The position numbers and the translations under genes are program-made. A DNA stretch of 64,000 nucleotides from contig JAFSDJ010000057.1 in NCBI GenBank assembly GCA_017436305.1, positions 1-64,000 of the forward strand. The letters are read 5' to 3'. Numbering within the stretch: position 1 is the stretch's first letter; every line of letters starts with the position of its first letter. Source of the DNA: Lachnospiraceae bacterium. Lineage in GTDB: Bacteria; Bacillota; Clostridia; Lachnospirales; Lachnospiraceae. This document shows positions 40,107-50,372 of the stretch, piece after piece. The notes under the pieces were generated by a model. That model was not told the origin of the DNA. It did no database searches and saw only the letters and a list, made by a program, of their open reading frames with translations.

Positions 40107-40135
40107 TTGCCAAAATTAAAAAAAGTGCATATAAT
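40107..40135 (+). promoter_or_regulatory. Promoter of the type III antitoxin RNA
   Basis: TTGCCA (40107-40112), a 17-base spacer and TATAAT (40130-40135) place the transcription start near 40142, just before the RNA repeats. A strong promoter in front of the repeats is required in this class of system. Confidence 0.75.
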
Positions 40136-40171
40136 ATAATTAAGAACAGAAAAGTTCTGCTTCATCAGTGA

Positions 40172-40271
40172 TGAGTCCTGTGACGGTTCTGACAGGACGG
40201 TAAAATAAAAATTGACCGAGCGCTGAGTCCTGTGACGGTTCTGACAGGACGGTAAAATAAAAATTGACCGA
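40172..40271 (+). repeat. Two identical 48-bp tandem repeats
   Basis: The units at 40172-40219 and 40224-40271 are identical and separated by GCGC, a period of 52 bases. Each starts TGAGTCCTGTGACGG. Confidence 0.95.
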
Positions 40272-40287
40272 ATGATGAAGAGGTTAG

Positions 40288-40312
40288 CGAGAGGTTTCGG
40301 CCTCTCGTTTTT
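40288..40312 (+). terminator. Terminator between antitoxin RNA and toxin gene
   Basis: CGAGAGG (40288-40294) and CCTCTCG (40301-40307) form a 7-bp stem with loop TTTCGG, followed by five T. It lies 20 bases before the toxin start. In type III systems this leaky terminator sets the excess of antitoxin over toxin. Confidence 0.9.
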
Positions 40313-40332
40313 CTGCAATATAAGGAGAAAAT

Positions 40333-40812
40333 ATGAAGTTGTCGGATAATGATTTTCAAATTCTTAGATTAACAGATGCATTCTATAAAGCATATCCAAA
40401 TCCACCCCATGTTGAAATACTTAAGAAAAAGCAAAGAGCCTATAATTGCATATTGTTTCAGTCACATTATGACTATTTTGTATGTGTTCCGTATAGAACA
40501 GAGATTTCACATGCATATGCATATCACTTTAAAAATTCCAGACGAGCGAGAAAACATAAGTCGGGATTGGATTATACAAAAATACTGATTATTAATAAGT
40601 TGGACTATATTGATAGATGTGATGCGATTATTGATAATGATGAATTTAATGAAACCATGATTAATTTGGAAAAAATTAAAAGAGAAGCATTACGATATGT
40701 TGAAGAATATGTTGACCATGAAAATGGAGCAAATGTGTTACACCCTGAGGAATACCGAAGAAGATATACATACTCAACCTTAAAGTATTTTCATAAGGAA
40801 TTAGGTTTATAA
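40333..40812 (+). CDS. Type III toxin, CptN/ToxN-like endoribonuclease
   Basis: A 159-aa basic, Tyr/His/Arg-rich soluble protein in the size range of ToxN/CptN/TenpN toxins. The start FQILRLTDAFYKAYPNPPHV, then RAYNCILFQSHYDYFVCVPY near residues 35-55 and TKILIINKLDYID near 90, follow the ToxN pattern: a short beta barrel with a hydrophobic ...PL/P-R/S... turn, a KxxLIxN strand, then helices (MINLEKIKREALRYVEEYV). The assignment rests on this pattern plus the exact gene order promoter, RNA repeats, terminator, toxin. AAGGAG precedes the ATG. It should cleave RNA and be neutralised by the repeats. Confidence 0.78.
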   Translation: MKLSDNDFQILRLTDAFYKAYPNPPHVEILKKKQRAYNCILFQSHYDYFVCVPYRTEISHAYAYHFKNSRRARKHKSGLDYTKILIINKLDYIDRCDAIIDNDEFNETMINLEKIKREALRYVEEYVDHENGANVLHPEEYRRRYTYSTLKYFHKELGL

Positions 40813-40959: not shown

Positions 40960-41949
40960 ATGGAAGAAAAAATTTTAAAAGGAAGAAAGAATGGTATGCT
41001 TGTTTTGCTAATGACTTTGGTTATTTATGTACTGGCAATCATAGGAGTTGTTTTTGGAAGTATGATGCTTGAAAATACGGAAAATCCGGTATTGTTTATC
41101 ATTAGTATGATTTTTCTATGCACAACATGGATTCTATGGCTTGGCTTAAAAATTTTAAGACCGCAGGAAGCACTGGTTCTTACTTTATTTGGTAATTATG
41201 TGGGAACAATAAAAGAGCCTGGTTTTTACTTTGTAAACCCATTTTGCTCTGCAGTGAATCCGGCTTCTAAAACACATTTAAATCAAAGTGGAGATGTAAA
41301 CTCTAAAAATATTAGCCCCAATCAGGAGCCAGAAACAAAGAAGCTTTCTTTGAAAATTATGACATTAAATAATAATCGCCAAAAAATCAACGATTGTCTT
41401 GGAAATCCTATTGAAATCGGAATAGCTGTAACATGGCGTGTTACCGATACTGCAAAAGCCGTATTTAATGTAGATAATTATAAGGAATTTCTTTCCCTGC
41501 AGTGCGATAGCGCACTGAGAAATATTGTGCGTATTTATCCTTATGACGTTGCACCAAATGTAGACACAACAGGAGATGGTGTAGCAGATGAGGGAAGTCT
41601 TCGTGGTTCCAGCGAAATCGTGGCAAACAGAATTAAAGACGAAATTCAGAGCCGTGTTAATGAAGCCGGAATTGAAATTGTAGAAGCTCGTATTACTTAC
41701 CTTGCCTATGCAACTGAAATTGCAGCAGTTATGCTTCAAAGACAGCAGGCATCAGCCATTATCGATGCAAGAAAAATGATTGTTGACGGTGCTGTTGGTA
41801 TGGTAGAAATGGCTTTGGAACGTTTAAATGAGAAACAGATAGTAGAGTTGGATGAGGAACGTAAGGCGGCAATGGTGTCCAATTTGTTAGTTGTTCTCTG
41901 TGGTAATCATGACGCACAGCCTGTAGTAAATTCAGGCAGTCTGTATTAA
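40960..41949 (+). CDS. SPFH/band 7 domain membrane protein
   Basis: A 329-aa protein with two N-terminal TM helices (about residues 13-34 and 44-65), then the band 7 domain: [28 protein letters not shown] at 70-97, [22 protein letters not shown] near 150 and [30 protein letters not shown] near 215-245. SPFH proteins scaffold membrane microdomains. It is followed after four bases by a small ribbon-helix-helix protein, a pairing frequent in Firmicutes and actinobacteria. The acidic [11 protein letters not shown] loop may bind Ca2+, which is speculative. Confidence 0.9.
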
Positions 41950-41953
41950 AATA

Positions 41954-42160
41954 ATGGCTGAAAATAATAATAAAAAGCAGGTTCCCCTCAGGCTGTCTTC
42001 TAAATTGTACAATGCCATTGCTGCCTGGGCTGAGGACGATTTTCGCTCAGTAAATGGACAGATTGAATATCTTTTAACAGAGTGTGTACGTCAACGGAAG
42101 AAAAACGGAAAGTATGTCTCTGATGAAATTGATGTTCCGCCAGAGCTTGATATTGAATGA
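41954..42160 (+). CDS. Arc-like ribbon-helix-helix DNA-binding protein
   Basis: A 68-aa protein with [20 protein letters not shown] (residues 10-29), the beta strand plus first helix of an Arc/MetJ fold, then [19 protein letters not shown] as helix two, and an acidic tail. It is the partner commonly encoded after SPFH genes. It probably represses the pair through the palindrome at 40922-40938. No toxin partner is nearby, so I do not call it an antitoxin. Confidence 0.78.
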
Positions 42161-47918: not shown

Positions 47919-50372
47919 TTGAAGAAAAAAAGAAGTGCAGCAAAACGATTTATGAGCTTTGTGCTGTCCATGGTACTGGTGCTGACTGGCATGACAGTTC
48001 CTGTTAAGACCGTGCAGGCGACAGAAACAACAGGAGAGTGTGGAGAGAAGCTCACATGGACATTAGCAGATGGAGTTTTAACCATCGCTGGAACGGGAGC
48101 AATGACGGATTATGGAGGATCTACTAAATTTCCATGGTATGATTCAAAAGACAATATCACAAGCGTGGAGATTAAGGAGGGTGTAACCAGTATTGCAGAC
48201 GGGGCATTTTATAGTTATGAGAATTTGAAGAGTATCCAAATCCCAGCCAGCTTAGAGAGTATTGGTGAGTATGCATTTATGGAGTGCGATAATCTAAAGG
48301 ACGTTGATATTGCAGAAGGTAGTGAGTTAACCAGTATCGGAGTGAAGGCATTTTGCTGGTGTACCGGCCTTGAGGAGATTGAAGTTCCGGCAGGTGTGAC
48401 AGAAATCGGTACAGATGCATTTTTTGCATGTGGTGCATTGCAAATTTCTGTAGTTTCGGAAAATACAGTTTATGCATCAAGGGACGGTGCATTGTATGAT
48501 AAGAACATGACCACTCTGATAGCTGCTCCTGGAGCATCCGGTGAGTTTGTAATTCCATCCGGTGTGAAAAACATAGATACGTCTGCTTTTGCGTACTGCT
48601 CCAACTTAAGTAGTGTGAAAATTCCGGAAGGTGTGGAAAGTATCGGAGATCTTGCTTTTTATGATTGTTCTAAATTAAGCAGTGTTGAAATTCCGGAAGG
48701 TGTGGAAAGTATCGGAGATTCTGCTTTTGCCTATTGTGATCAGTTAAGCAGTGTTGAAATTCCGGAAGGTGTGACAAGTATCGGGAGTTATGCTTTTAGA
48801 CATTGTTATCAGTTAAGCAGTGTTGAAATACCGACAAGTGTGGAAAGTATCGGGAATTATGCTTTTGAGGTATGCTCCAACTTAAGCAGTGTTGTAATCT
48901 TAGCAAAAAATGTTAGTGGTTATAGCATTTTTGGGGAATGGACATATGTAGATACCGTCCTTTATCCGACAGACTGCACCTATAGTTTGTCTGACCTTGG
49001 TTTATCTGATGCATCAACACAGATTAGTATTGCGGATAAGGAAGATGGTACGGTTTCATTGCATGTAGAAAAAGTATCAGAGGAGATTGCGAATGGAACA
49101 AAGAGCCTGACACTCCCGACAGACCTTGGCGGTAAGAAGATTTCTGCTATCAGCTATGCAGAAGGAATTTCTAAGAAATCTATTTCCATTTCCCATGCAG
49201 AGCACAGCTTTGGCAATGGCACAGAAGCTTGTGTATGCGGATATGTGCCATTTACCGTATCGGGGAACTGTACATCTGTTAACCTGACCTATGGAAGCAT
49301 TAAAGGAGAGGAACTTTCCGTATCTGCCAATACAACCTTTGGAACGGAAACCCTTGCTTTTGAGTGGATGCTTGATGATAAAGCCATTGATGGTGCAACG
49401 AATAAAAACTATGCAATACCTGTAGATTTAAAGGCAGGAGATTATAATTTTAGTTGTACAGTAAGCAGTAATGGATACAGTCAGACTGTAGAGATTCCGG
49501 TTACAGTAGCGAAGAAGCAGATTACGATTCAGGCAGACAACAAGGAAAAGAAAAAGGGAGAAGAGAATCCTACACTTACTTATTCCGTACCGGAGGGTGT
49601 TTTGGTAGCAGGTGATAAGACAGCAGACTGGACAGTAAGTTTGATTACAACAGCTACAAAGGATTCTGCGGTAGGTACTTATAAGATTACGGGAACAGCC
49701 ACAAGTGAGAATTATGAGATAACCGTAACACCGGGTACATTAACGGTAAAAGCAGCACAGACAACGAATCCTGACGATAACTCTGATACATCAAAGGATG
49801 AGCCACAAAGTGGCAGCCCGGAGACACCAAAGGCTGAAGCACCTAAAAAAGGTAATGAAATAAAGGATGTGGATAATAAAGCTGTTTACAAGGTAACCAA
49901 AGTCGGGGATACTTCCGGTAAAGTAGGTACTGTTGAATATGTGAAGCCGGTTAAAAAGTCTGCAAAGACAGTAAGCATTCCATCCACAATTACGGTAGAT
50001 GGAATCAAATATAAGGTAACAAGCATTGCATCCAAGGCATTTAAGAGTAATAAGTACATAACCAAGGTTACAATCGGAAACAATGTTAAGACCATCGGTT
50101 CAAGTGCATTCTATAAATGTACAAAGTTAAAGACAGTAACCATAGGAAATGGTGTAACAACCATTAAAAGCAAGGCTTTCTATGGCTGTAAGAAATTAAA
50201 AACACTTACCATCAAATCAACCAAACTAAAAACCGAGAAGATTGGAAGTAAGGCATTTACAAAGACACCAAAGAGCATGACAGTAAAAGTACCAAAGAAG
50301 AAATTCAAGGGTTACAAGACGATGCTACTTAAGAAAGGTGTAAATAAAAAAGCGAAATTTAAAAAAATATAA
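47919..50372 (+). CDS. BspA-type leucine-rich repeat surface protein
   Basis: An 817-aa exported protein. It starts with TTG, supported by AAAGGAGG at 47904-47911. The signal peptide ends near residue 35 (VQATE). LRR_5 (BspA) repeats run from about 60 to 330, including an exact 69-bp DNA period (23-residue LSSVEIPEGVESIGDSAF-type units). Next come an Ig-like part near 430-530, an MBG-type domain near 530-610 (ITIQADNKEKKKGEENPTLTY), a Pro/Ser/Asp linker, and a second LRR block (YKVTSIASKAFKSNKYITKV) with a Lys-rich end. BspA proteins bind host or bacterial surfaces. No sortase motif is seen. Confidence 0.88.
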   Translation: MKKKRSAAKRFMSFVLSMVLVLTGMTVPVKTVQATETTGECGEKLTWTLADGVLTIAGTGAMTDYGGSTKFPWYDSKDNITSVEIKEGVTSIADGAFYSYENLKSIQIPASLESIGEYAFMECDNLKDVDIAEGSELTSIGVKAFCWCTGLEEIEVPAGVTEIGTDAFFACGALQISVVSENTVYASRDGALYDKNMTTLIAAPGASGEFVIPSGVKNIDTSAFAYCSNLSSVKIPEGVESIGDLAFYDCSKLSSVEIPEGVESIGDSAFAYCDQLSSVEIPEGVTSIGSYAFRHCYQLSSVEIPTSVESIGNYAFEVCSNLSSVVILAKNVSGYSIFGEWTYVDTVLYPTDCTYSLSDLGLSDASTQISIADKEDGTVSLHVEKVSEEIANGTKSLTLPTDLGGKKISAISYAEGISKKSISISHAEHSFGNGTEACVCGYVPFTVSGNCTSVNLTYGSIKGEELSVSANTTFGTETLAFEWMLDDKAIDGATNKNYAIPVDLKAGDYNFSCTVSSNGYSQTVEIPVTVAKKQITIQADNKEKKKGEENPTLTYSVPEGVLVAGDKTADWTVSLITTATKDSAVGTYKITGTATSENYEITVTPGTLTVKAAQTTNPDDNSDTSKDEPQSGSPETPKAEAPKKGNEIKDVDNKAVYKVTKVGDTSGKVGTVEYVKPVKKSAKTVSIPSTITVDGIKYKVTSIASKAFKSNKYITKVTIGNNVKTIGSSAFYKCTKLKTVTIGNGVTTIKSKAFYGCKKLKTLTIKSTKLKTEKIGSKAFTKTPKSMTVKVPKKKFKGYKTMLLKKGVNKKAKFKKI
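48606..48881 (+). repeat. 69-bp tandem repeats inside the BspA-like gene
   Basis: Units start at 48606, 48675, 48744 and 48813, and the next begins at 48882, an exact 69-bp period. The first three are nearly identical over AGCAGTGTTGAAATTCCGG and GTGGAAAGTATCGG. Units encode 23-residue leucine-rich repeats. Unequal crossing over could change their number. Confidence 0.85.

What the first reader, a model, noticed from the sequence alone, without database searches (positions are those of the whole stretch)
40107..40812. Complete type III toxin-antitoxin locus, CptIN/ToxIN-like
Seen directly: a TTGCCA-17-TATAAT promoter, two identical 48-bp repeats each with a hairpin, a strong terminator, and 20 bases later a 159-aa basic protein with its own ribosome site. 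Known: this exact order defines type III systems (toxIN, cptIN, tenpIN), in which an endoRNase toxin is held by repeat RNA it processes itself, often giving phage resistance by abortive infection. Inferred: the protein is a CptN-like toxin; its strand and helix pattern fits but identity to known members is low by eye.
Basis: partly seen in the sequence, partly recalled or inferred. Interest (0 to 1): 0.85.

Follow-up and report, generated by a model that had tools for sequence, protein, structure and literature searches.

The report
TenpIN toxin-antitoxin locus with phage mimics
A gut bacterium carries a known kind of self-poisoning anti-phage switch, a toxin held in check by a small knotted RNA, and the same RNA knot turns up alone, without the toxin, among the transfer-RNA genes of several phages, where it may serve as a stolen antidote.

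Summary
Window 40107-40812 holds a promoter-like site, two 52-nt repeats (50 of 52 identical), a terminator and a 159-aa gene. The gene is not CptN-like: it matches NCBIfam NF047358, type III TenpIN toxin, E 5.7e-47, 159.5 bits against a cut-off of 90. The locus is a new member of a known family.

Relatives show that the antitoxin is an H-type pseudoknot with compensatory changes (98.3% of cells paired, 0 of 500 shuffles equal it; 30 distinct units). A leader/trailer helix encloses the array (0 of 2000 permutations). Arrays with one unit mostly have broken toxins (8 of 9, against 3 of 35).

The most interesting lead lies outside the window. Of 28 viral contigs with such units, 25 show no TenpN in the fetched stretch, and 19 of those have tRNA genes beside the unit. 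Their pseudoknot is kept, but the linker GA found in 87 of 90 toxin-locus units is absent in all 19. I read them as phage-borne antitoxin mimics, like pseudo-ToxI of phage PhiTE. Function is untested, and the fold test could not be run.

The parts
40107..40135 (+). sigma-70-type promoter-like site, TTGCCA - 17 nt - TATAAT
   Evidence: consensus match only; -10-like TATAAT sequences at a similar place are visible in many relatives printed (read by eye, not counted)
40143..40158 (+). hairpin near the predicted 5' end of the transcript (40143-40147 with 40154-40158)
   Evidence: fold; segment z -2.0 in the window, z below -1 in 31 of 37 loci whose toxin is not broken
40160..40167 (+). leader element CTTCATCA, 5' arm of the closing helix
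   Evidence: pairs with 40273-40280 in the fold; over 37 loci own leader/trailer pairing is not reached by any of 2000 permutations
40175..40218 (+). TenpI unit 1, H-type pseudoknot: S1 40175-40181/40192-40198, S2 40184-40188/40214-40218, A-rich loop 40199-40213
   Evidence: coordinates; covariation
40219..40226 (+). internal linker AGCGCTGA, predicted toxin processing region; lacks the GA at positions 3-6 found in 87 of 90 toxin-locus units
   Evidence: processing itself is inferred
40227..40270 (+). TenpI unit 2, same pseudoknot
40273..40280 (+). trailer TGATGAAG, 3' arm of the closing helix and predicted last processing region
40288..40312 (+). intrinsic terminator between antitoxin and toxin
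   Evidence: not listed by the simple scan
40322..40327 (+). ribosome-binding site AAGGAG
   Evidence: sequence
40333..40812 (+). tenpN, 159-aa TenpIN-family toxin
   Evidence: NF047358 E 5.7e-47, 159.5 bits, cut-off 90; 21 of 397 genomes of the family have a match, the window's own included

Best explanation
This is a chromosomal TenpIN type III toxin-antitoxin locus. One promoter makes an RNA with a 5' hairpin, two pseudoknotted 52-nt TenpI units held between a pairing leader and trailer, and a terminator. Most transcripts would stop there and give excess antitoxin; read-through makes TenpN. TenpN is inferred to be an endoribonuclease that cuts the linkers, binds the released units and is held inactive by them; loss of antitoxin supply on phage infection would free it and abort the infection. 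Shown here: family of the toxin, order of parts, conservation of pseudoknot and closing helix. Inferred from the family: transcription, ribonuclease activity, self-processing, abortive infection.
For: NF047358 match far above cut-off; 46 of 46 aligned proteins match the same model at E up to 1. Two 52-nt units upstream, terminator between, RBS after. Both pseudoknot stems keep pairing across 30 distinct units, picked by me from 60: S1 has changes on both sides in 6 of 7 pairs, and four of the five measures exceed all 500 shuffles. S2 occurs as CGGUU/GACCG, CUGUU/GACAG and CGGUU/AACCG. The rival second hairpin has no pair with a change on both sides. Loci with a single unit have broken toxins in 8 of 9, loci with two or three units in 3 of 35, as expected if antitoxin and toxin are coupled. 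Remote ToxN resemblance: hhalign score 27.5 against a maximum of 22.1 in 100 column shuffles, lining up R35-x-Y37 and P53-x-R55-T56...H60 with the RxYIG and PLSSPKxKH of ToxN.
Against: No fold comparison was possible. The ToxN profile match is weak (probability 18.6%). One of the five covariation measures, the number of further pair types, is reached by 168 of 500 shuffles. The window's internal linker is one of only 3 of 90 without GA at positions 3-6, and the other two belong to loci with broken toxins, so processing between its two units may be impaired. Only 1 of 6 genomes of the genus, its own, has the locus. Covariation counts include related rows, so they count sequences rather than independent events.
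Confidence: 0.92

Rival explanations
1. A CptIN locus: a CptN-type toxin with CptI repeats and a 2:2 ring.
For: Same gene order, similar protein length (159 aa against 162 listed for E. rectale CptN) and both occur in gut clostridia (PMC6315513 Table 3, passage seen). No TenpIN structure turned up, so a 2:2 ring cannot be excluded.
Against: The toxin matches TenpIN and no other family above cut-off; a 46-sequence profile finds no CptN chain among PDB sequences up to E 10. Unit 52 nt against 45 nt in CptIEr (PMC4627078, passages seen).
Confidence: 0.03
2. A decaying or inactive TenpIN locus: the parts are present but the internal processing site is lost.
For: Internal linker AGCGCTGA lacks GA at positions 3-6; the two other exceptions, L060 and L067, have broken toxins.
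Against: Toxin frame intact and 67-70% identical to the three closest relatives; both pseudoknots, closing helix and terminator intact.
Confidence: 0.12
3. The repeats form ordinary hairpins (regulatory attenuator of the downstream gene) and no RNA antitoxin is made.
For: Folds that do not allow pseudoknots also give hairpins.
Against: The pseudoknot arm covaries while the alternative hairpin does not; units occur alone, without a recognisable toxin downstream, in viral contigs.
Confidence: 0.03

Closest known systems
TenpIN family, e.g. TenpINPl of Photorhabdus luminescens
   Same: Toxin family model, order antitoxin repeats - terminator - toxin. TenpINPl aborts phages (PMC5377504, passages seen). 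A gut tenpIN with a 158-aa toxin and 55-nt repeats, 2.1 copies, is listed for Clostridium hiranonis (PMC6315513 Table 3, passage seen).
   Different: Units belong to a type with GACGGUUCYG loop and A-rich GGUAAAAUAAAA loop. Photorhabdus, Xenorhabdus and enterobacterial plasmid relatives are about 25-37% identical in the toxin and have other unit sequences (by eye).
CptIN of Eubacterium rectale
   Same: Type III organisation; pseudoknotted antitoxin unit (PMC4627078, passages seen).
   Different: Toxin is of another sequence family; unit 45 nt.
ToxIN / AbiQ
   Same: Type III organisation; weak profile similarity round the ToxN active-site loop.
   Different: No PF13958 match up to E 1; unit 34-36 nt (PMC5086642, first part of the text seen).
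pseudo-ToxI of Pectobacterium phage PhiTE
   Same: Phage-borne copy of a type III antitoxin unit without toxin (PMC3475682, passages seen).
   Different: Wild-type PhiTE has 1.5 repeats that cannot form a full pseudoknot and sit between two protein genes; here the tRNA-array units are single complete pseudoknots (S2 one pair short in L129 and L131) beside tRNA genes, and the family is TenpI.
Racr, RNA anti-CRISPRs (solitary CRISPR repeat units of phages)
   Same: A single repeat of a host defence array carried alone by phages as an RNA mimic (PMC10651486, abstract and passages seen).
   Different: Mimics a toxin's RNA antidote, not a CRISPR repeat; the word tRNA does not occur in that paper's main text.

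Membership tests
TenpIN type III toxin-antitoxin | toxin sequence in the TenpN family | tested here: met
   NF047358 equivalog, 159.5 bits against cut-off 90
TenpIN type III toxin-antitoxin | tandem nucleotide repeats immediately upstream | tested here: met
   2 units, period 52, 50 of 52 identical
TenpIN type III toxin-antitoxin | Rho-independent terminator between repeats and toxin | tested here: met
   fold z -3.13 with T-run; the simple scan did not list it
TenpIN type III toxin-antitoxin | antitoxin unit is a pseudoknot | tested here: met
   covariation on 30 of 60 distinct units, 4 of 5 measures beyond 500 shuffles; not probed by experiment
TenpIN type III toxin-antitoxin | toxin has the ToxN/Kid-like fold | tested here: inconclusive
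   AF2 single sequence pLDDT 34.8; alignment job failed, tool off; hhalign weak but above shuffles
TenpIN type III toxin-antitoxin | toxin cuts its own antitoxin and cellular RNA | not testable with these tools
   needs expression or in vitro cleavage
CptIN | toxin sequence in the CptN family | tested here: not met
   only TenpIN above cut-off; no CptN chain found with the profile up to E 10. Whether NCBIfam holds a CptIN model was not checked
ToxIN/AbiQ | PF13958 ToxN domain | tested here: not met
   no PF13958 match up to E 1 in the window's toxin nor among the families listed for the 46 aligned proteins
phage-borne RNA antitoxin mimic (pseudo-ToxI kind), for the viral units | antitoxin unit in a phage genome without its toxin | tested here: met
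   25 of 28 viral contigs with units have no TenpN in the fetched stretch, with at least 652 nt held downstream of the last unit
phage-borne RNA antitoxin mimic (pseudo-ToxI kind), for the viral units | protects the phage from the toxin | not testable with these tools
   needs a phage and a TenpIN host

The most novel reading that the evidence does not exclude
Phages of gut bacteria carry solitary TenpI pseudoknots inside their tRNA arrays as RNA antitoxin mimics. They would be released by tRNA-processing enzymes, bind TenpN and blunt TenpIN abortive infection. Unlike toxin-locus units they lack the GA in the 3' linker where type III toxins are expected to cut, so they may bind without being processed: a decoy that is not a substrate. 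The host arrays, in turn, are enclosed by a leader-trailer helix that may control processing.
Probability: 0.5. Interest if true: 0.8.

Novelty: new member of a known kind. Interest (0 to 1): 0.6.

Why it matters
The locus itself is one more TenpIN; matches occur in 21 of 397 sampled genomes of its family, its own included. What it opens matters more. The unit gives a pattern that finds the antitoxin without the toxin. With it, solitary TenpI pseudoknots appear in phage stretches that share little other DNA: between L121 and L132, and between L120 and L144, the unit is the only blastn match. If they act on TenpN, RNA mimicry of type III antitoxins is a standing phage counter-defence placed in tRNA arrays, not only a rare escape mutation. 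The contrast in linkers (GA in 87 of 90 toxin-locus units, 8 of 9 units of toxin-less bacterial loci, 0 of 19 tRNA-array units) names a cut site that one in vitro assay can test.

Tried and rejected
CptIN assignment: rejected on family match. Hammerhead-like look of the unit start (my own passing thought): dropped; no Rfam family at gathering threshold and nothing above its gathering score with relaxed limits. Fold test: single-sequence model unusable; alignment job interrupted. Clean empty site in sister species: not found; the Band 7 and RHH genes to the right are present in 4 of 5 congeners but the left flank differs. Generic pseudoknot search in 18 distant loci: only 8 of 18 beat all 40 shuffles, several of those on stretches outside the array; used only as support. 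First unit patterns for viral contigs and genomes had a spacing error (six instead of five free bases); searches are void and were replaced by 95 and 96. Another TenpI type (L080-L082) occurs in 3 viral contigs, the same three in which one search had found a TenpN relative, so solitary carriage is not shown for that type. Closing helix in the phage units: suggestive only. Against 300 shuffles each, 11 reach it in the L120 group, 6 in L132, 3 in L143, 0 in L144 and 31 in L175, but 42 to 106 in the L121 group, 107 in L127, 139 in L174, 177 in L126/L141 and 202 in L136. In one search the script's choice of the S2 tail was ambiguous in many rows, which shifts some trailers by 4 nt; tails were taken instead. 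Solitary units also occur in bacteria: of 19 genomes with the unit, 8 have no TenpN match at E 0.001 and their loci show a lost, fragmentary or degenerate toxin (L149, L151, L154, L156, L157, L159, L160, L163), so decay can also leave units without a toxin. The GA test was framed after looking at the linkers.

Full report
What is there. A terminator follows, and 20 nt after its T-run a 159-aa ORF with an AAGGAG site. The transcript 40142-40318 folds better than each of 200 shuffles.

What the protein is. Pfam and PADLOC give nothing above threshold. NCBIfam gives one family above its cut-off: NF047358, type III TenpIN toxin, E 5.7e-47, 159.5 bits against 90. All 46 proteins of the relative alignment, the window's included, match the same model at E up to 1. 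A profile comparison with 17 ToxN (PF13958) proteins gives a weak but non-random match (probability 18.6%, E 0.0013; score 27.5 against at most 22.1 in 100 column shuffles and 11.7 for the reversed profile). It lines up the conserved R35, Y37, P53, R55 and H60 of TenpN with the ToxN loop that holds its active-site Thr, Ser and Lys (ToxN residues from PMC8860590 and PMC5086642, passages seen).

How widespread it is. 21 of 397 sampled genomes of the family match, the window's own included; 1 of 6 genomes of the genus, its own. A scan of one genome per species gave 53 loci; 26 of the 53 record titles say Lachnospiraceae, others name for instance Synergistales, Acidaminococcaceae, Treponema, Photorhabdus and Xenorhabdus. 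Plasmids: 42 records, 25 of them Escherichia or Salmonella, all under 60% identity. INPHARED phages: no protein match at E 1e-5 and no full match to the unit.

The antitoxin RNA. A script looked for the window's unit type in 81 loci and found 105 units in 57 of them, 60 distinct. Each has a 7-nt stem arm S1, a loop (GACGGUUCYG in 91 of 105), an A-rich loop and a 3' arm that can pair with the first loop: an H-type pseudoknot. On 30 of the 60 distinct units, picked by me for variety, 98.3% of cells pair, 6 of 7 S1 pairs change on both sides, and four of five measures exceed all 500 shuffles; the fifth, further pair types, is reached by 168 of 500. Sliding the partner by 1 to 3 columns drops pairing below 46%. 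S2 itself changes in step: CGGUU/GACCG in 87 units, CUGUU/GACAG in 9, CGGUU/AACCG in 6, against 3 units with a mismatch (2 CUGUU/GACCG, 1 CGAUA/GACCG). All three mismatched units (L010, L053, L066) belong to loci with broken toxins. The 9 CUGUU/GACAG units come from loci that look closely related, so that change is probably one event. The alternative hairpin has no pair changed on both sides and is broken in part of the rows. By eye the distant Photorhabdus, Bacillota and enterobacterial relatives have the same plan with other sequences, but a blind search supports this in only 8 of 18 of them.

Leader and trailer. The leader CUUCAUCA pairs with the trailer UGAUGAAG. Of 49 non-duplicate loci, 37 were used: L035 (array cut by the contig end) and 11 with broken toxins were left out, two without a start codon and two cut inside the toxin were kept. 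Over these, each leader fits its own trailer better than chance (mean score 17.8 against 14.4; 0 of 2000 permutations reach it; also 0 of 2000 on 29 distinct pairs). Classes with changed sequence on both sides exist: UUCAUCAC/GUGAUGAA, CUUCGCU/AGCGAAG, UCAGCU/AGCUGA. The trailer is the better partner than an internal linker in 24 of 36 loci with at least two units, equal in 9, worse in 3, so a helix that encloses the array is favoured over masking of each linker. A hairpin near the predicted 5' end has z below -1 in 31 of the 37. A leader that blocks processing of the first repeat is known for Cas13 arrays (PMC13187072, abstract seen); whether this one does so is open. The passages read do not describe these TenpI features, and the listings show none by title or start of abstract. 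The paper that named the three families (Nucleic Acids Res 2012, recalled) is not held, so predicted TenpI pseudoknots may already be in print.

Unit number and toxin fate. Of the same 49 loci, 44 have a whole array and a toxin that can be judged. One-unit arrays go with broken toxins in 8 of 9, arrays of two or three units in 3 of 35 (Fisher 8e-6). Left out: L035, two without a start codon (L002, L036) and two cut by the contig end (L063, L064). Loci share ancestry, so the p-value is too small, but the direction fits a toxin that needs at least two units.

Solitary units in phages. A pattern for the unit, which fits the window twice and never in 100 shuffles, finds in a slightly wider form 26 viral contigs; a second, looser one adds L174 and L175. 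The pattern read backwards finds none, and that read backwards none in 397 genomes where the true one matches 19. A TenpN profile finds the toxin in L119 and L137, and the contig of L128 is that of L022, which has it: 3 of 28. In the other 25 no TenpN was found in the fetched stretch, with at least 652 nt held downstream of the last unit. ARAGORN finds tRNA genes in 19 of these 25: 16 have the unit upstream of tRNA-Lys, with tRNA-Phe on its other side in 15 of them (the stretch of L134 begins inside that place), 2 have it next to tRNA-Leu and 1 next to tRNA-Gly. The arrays reach 22 tRNAs and some include tmRNA or ROOL RNA. Terminase and portal genes lie beside the arrays of L120 and L121, L144 has both and L136 a portal gene, so these are phages; apart from L132, the other contigs were not scanned for phage genes. 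Many of the 19 are near-copies: they reduce to 7 distinct units and about four phage groups by my reading. Yet in the fetched stretches L121 and L132, or L120 and L144, share no DNA that blastn detects other than the unit (44-48 nt, 89-98% identity); terminases of L120 and L144 are 31% identical. An alignment of the window's unit with 10 viral units keeps 99.2% of pseudoknot cells, with 4 S1 pairs changed on both sides (2 of 500 shuffles reach that). The one lost pair is in L129, whose 3' arm reads GACCA, as does that of L131. So the RNA, not the toxin, is kept.

A possible cut site. After the S2 arm, 87 of 90 units of the toxin-locus set have GA at positions 3-6 of the linker; 0 of 19 tRNA-array units do (18 of 21 against 0 of 6 distinct linkers, Fisher 2.8e-4). 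The test was framed after I had looked at the linkers. The 90 leave out 15 units from 8 duplicate loci and include 3 units of the viral TenpIN locus L022 and those of loci with broken toxins. As a control for decay, 8 of 9 units in eight toxin-less bacterial loci keep GA. Toxin-less viral units outside tRNA arrays are mixed: the first units of L136, L143 and L144 keep GA, L174 and L175 do not, and L127 has a damaged S2 arm and did not fit the script. CptN and ToxN leave a 3' end on an A (PMC4627078 and PMC8860590, passages seen), so a GA site is plausible for TenpN; this is inference. The three exceptions among the 90 are two loci with broken toxins (L060, L067) and the window's own internal linker, AGCGCTGA. 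On the 5' side all 19 tRNA-array units keep GAUGA (18) or GAAG (1), read.

Reading. For the window: a TenpIN system, very probably active in outline. For the phages: antitoxin mimics are the best reading, by analogy with pseudo-ToxI (PMC3475682, passages seen) and with solitary CRISPR repeats (PMC10651486, abstract and passages seen). Against it: no host is known for these contigs, expression is not shown, 8 of 19 bacterial genomes with the unit also lack a toxin match, the closing helix of the phage units is not significant in their largest group, and an unrelated use of a stable pseudoknot in tRNA arrays cannot be excluded. The interest score is about 0.3 for the locus alone and is raised by this lead.

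Noticed in passing
L122:795-980, L122:1460-1535, L122:2790-2996, L124:2895-2969, L124:1514-2124: Gaps in the phage tRNA arrays hold several short, closed RNA-like elements with a shared look (closing stem, then a motif near UAACAGCAA or GAACUGCAA). They may be a further family of small phage RNAs.
   Followed up: partly
L126:773-842, L141:1201-1270, L132:11103-11175: Skipping-rope RNAs (Rfam RF02924) lie within about 0.2 kb of the solitary TenpI unit in two phage groups.
   Followed up: no
L124:599-1208: ROOL RNA (RF03087, 348.5 bits) sits at the head of a phage tRNA array that also holds a solitary TenpI unit.
   Followed up: no
L143:7550-7830: Viral contig with two TenpI units, a terminator and a promoter-like sequence (by eye), but only a 25-codon ORF where the toxin should be: an antitoxin-only locus.
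   Followed up: partly
L053, L066: Single hybrid units (loop CUGUU, tail GACCG) that look like recombination between unit 1 and unit 2 of related arrays; pseudoknot mismatched, toxin broken in both.
   Followed up: partly
window 40333-40812: The toxin matches PHROG 8049, E 6.1e-15, listed as unknown function; that phage family is probably TenpN-like.
   Followed up: no
window 40960-42160: A Band 7 (SPFH) protein and a ribbon-helix-helix-like protein directly follow the locus and stay together in 4 of 5 congeners (80-94% identical) while the left flank differs.
   Followed up: partly
window 48561-48898: Tandem repeat, period 69 nt, about 5 copies, inside a large ORF (47919-50372), perhaps a repeat-rich surface protein.
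   Followed up: no
L002, L036: Two close relatives have no ATG, GTG or TTG near the expected toxin start although the frame is open.
   Followed up: no
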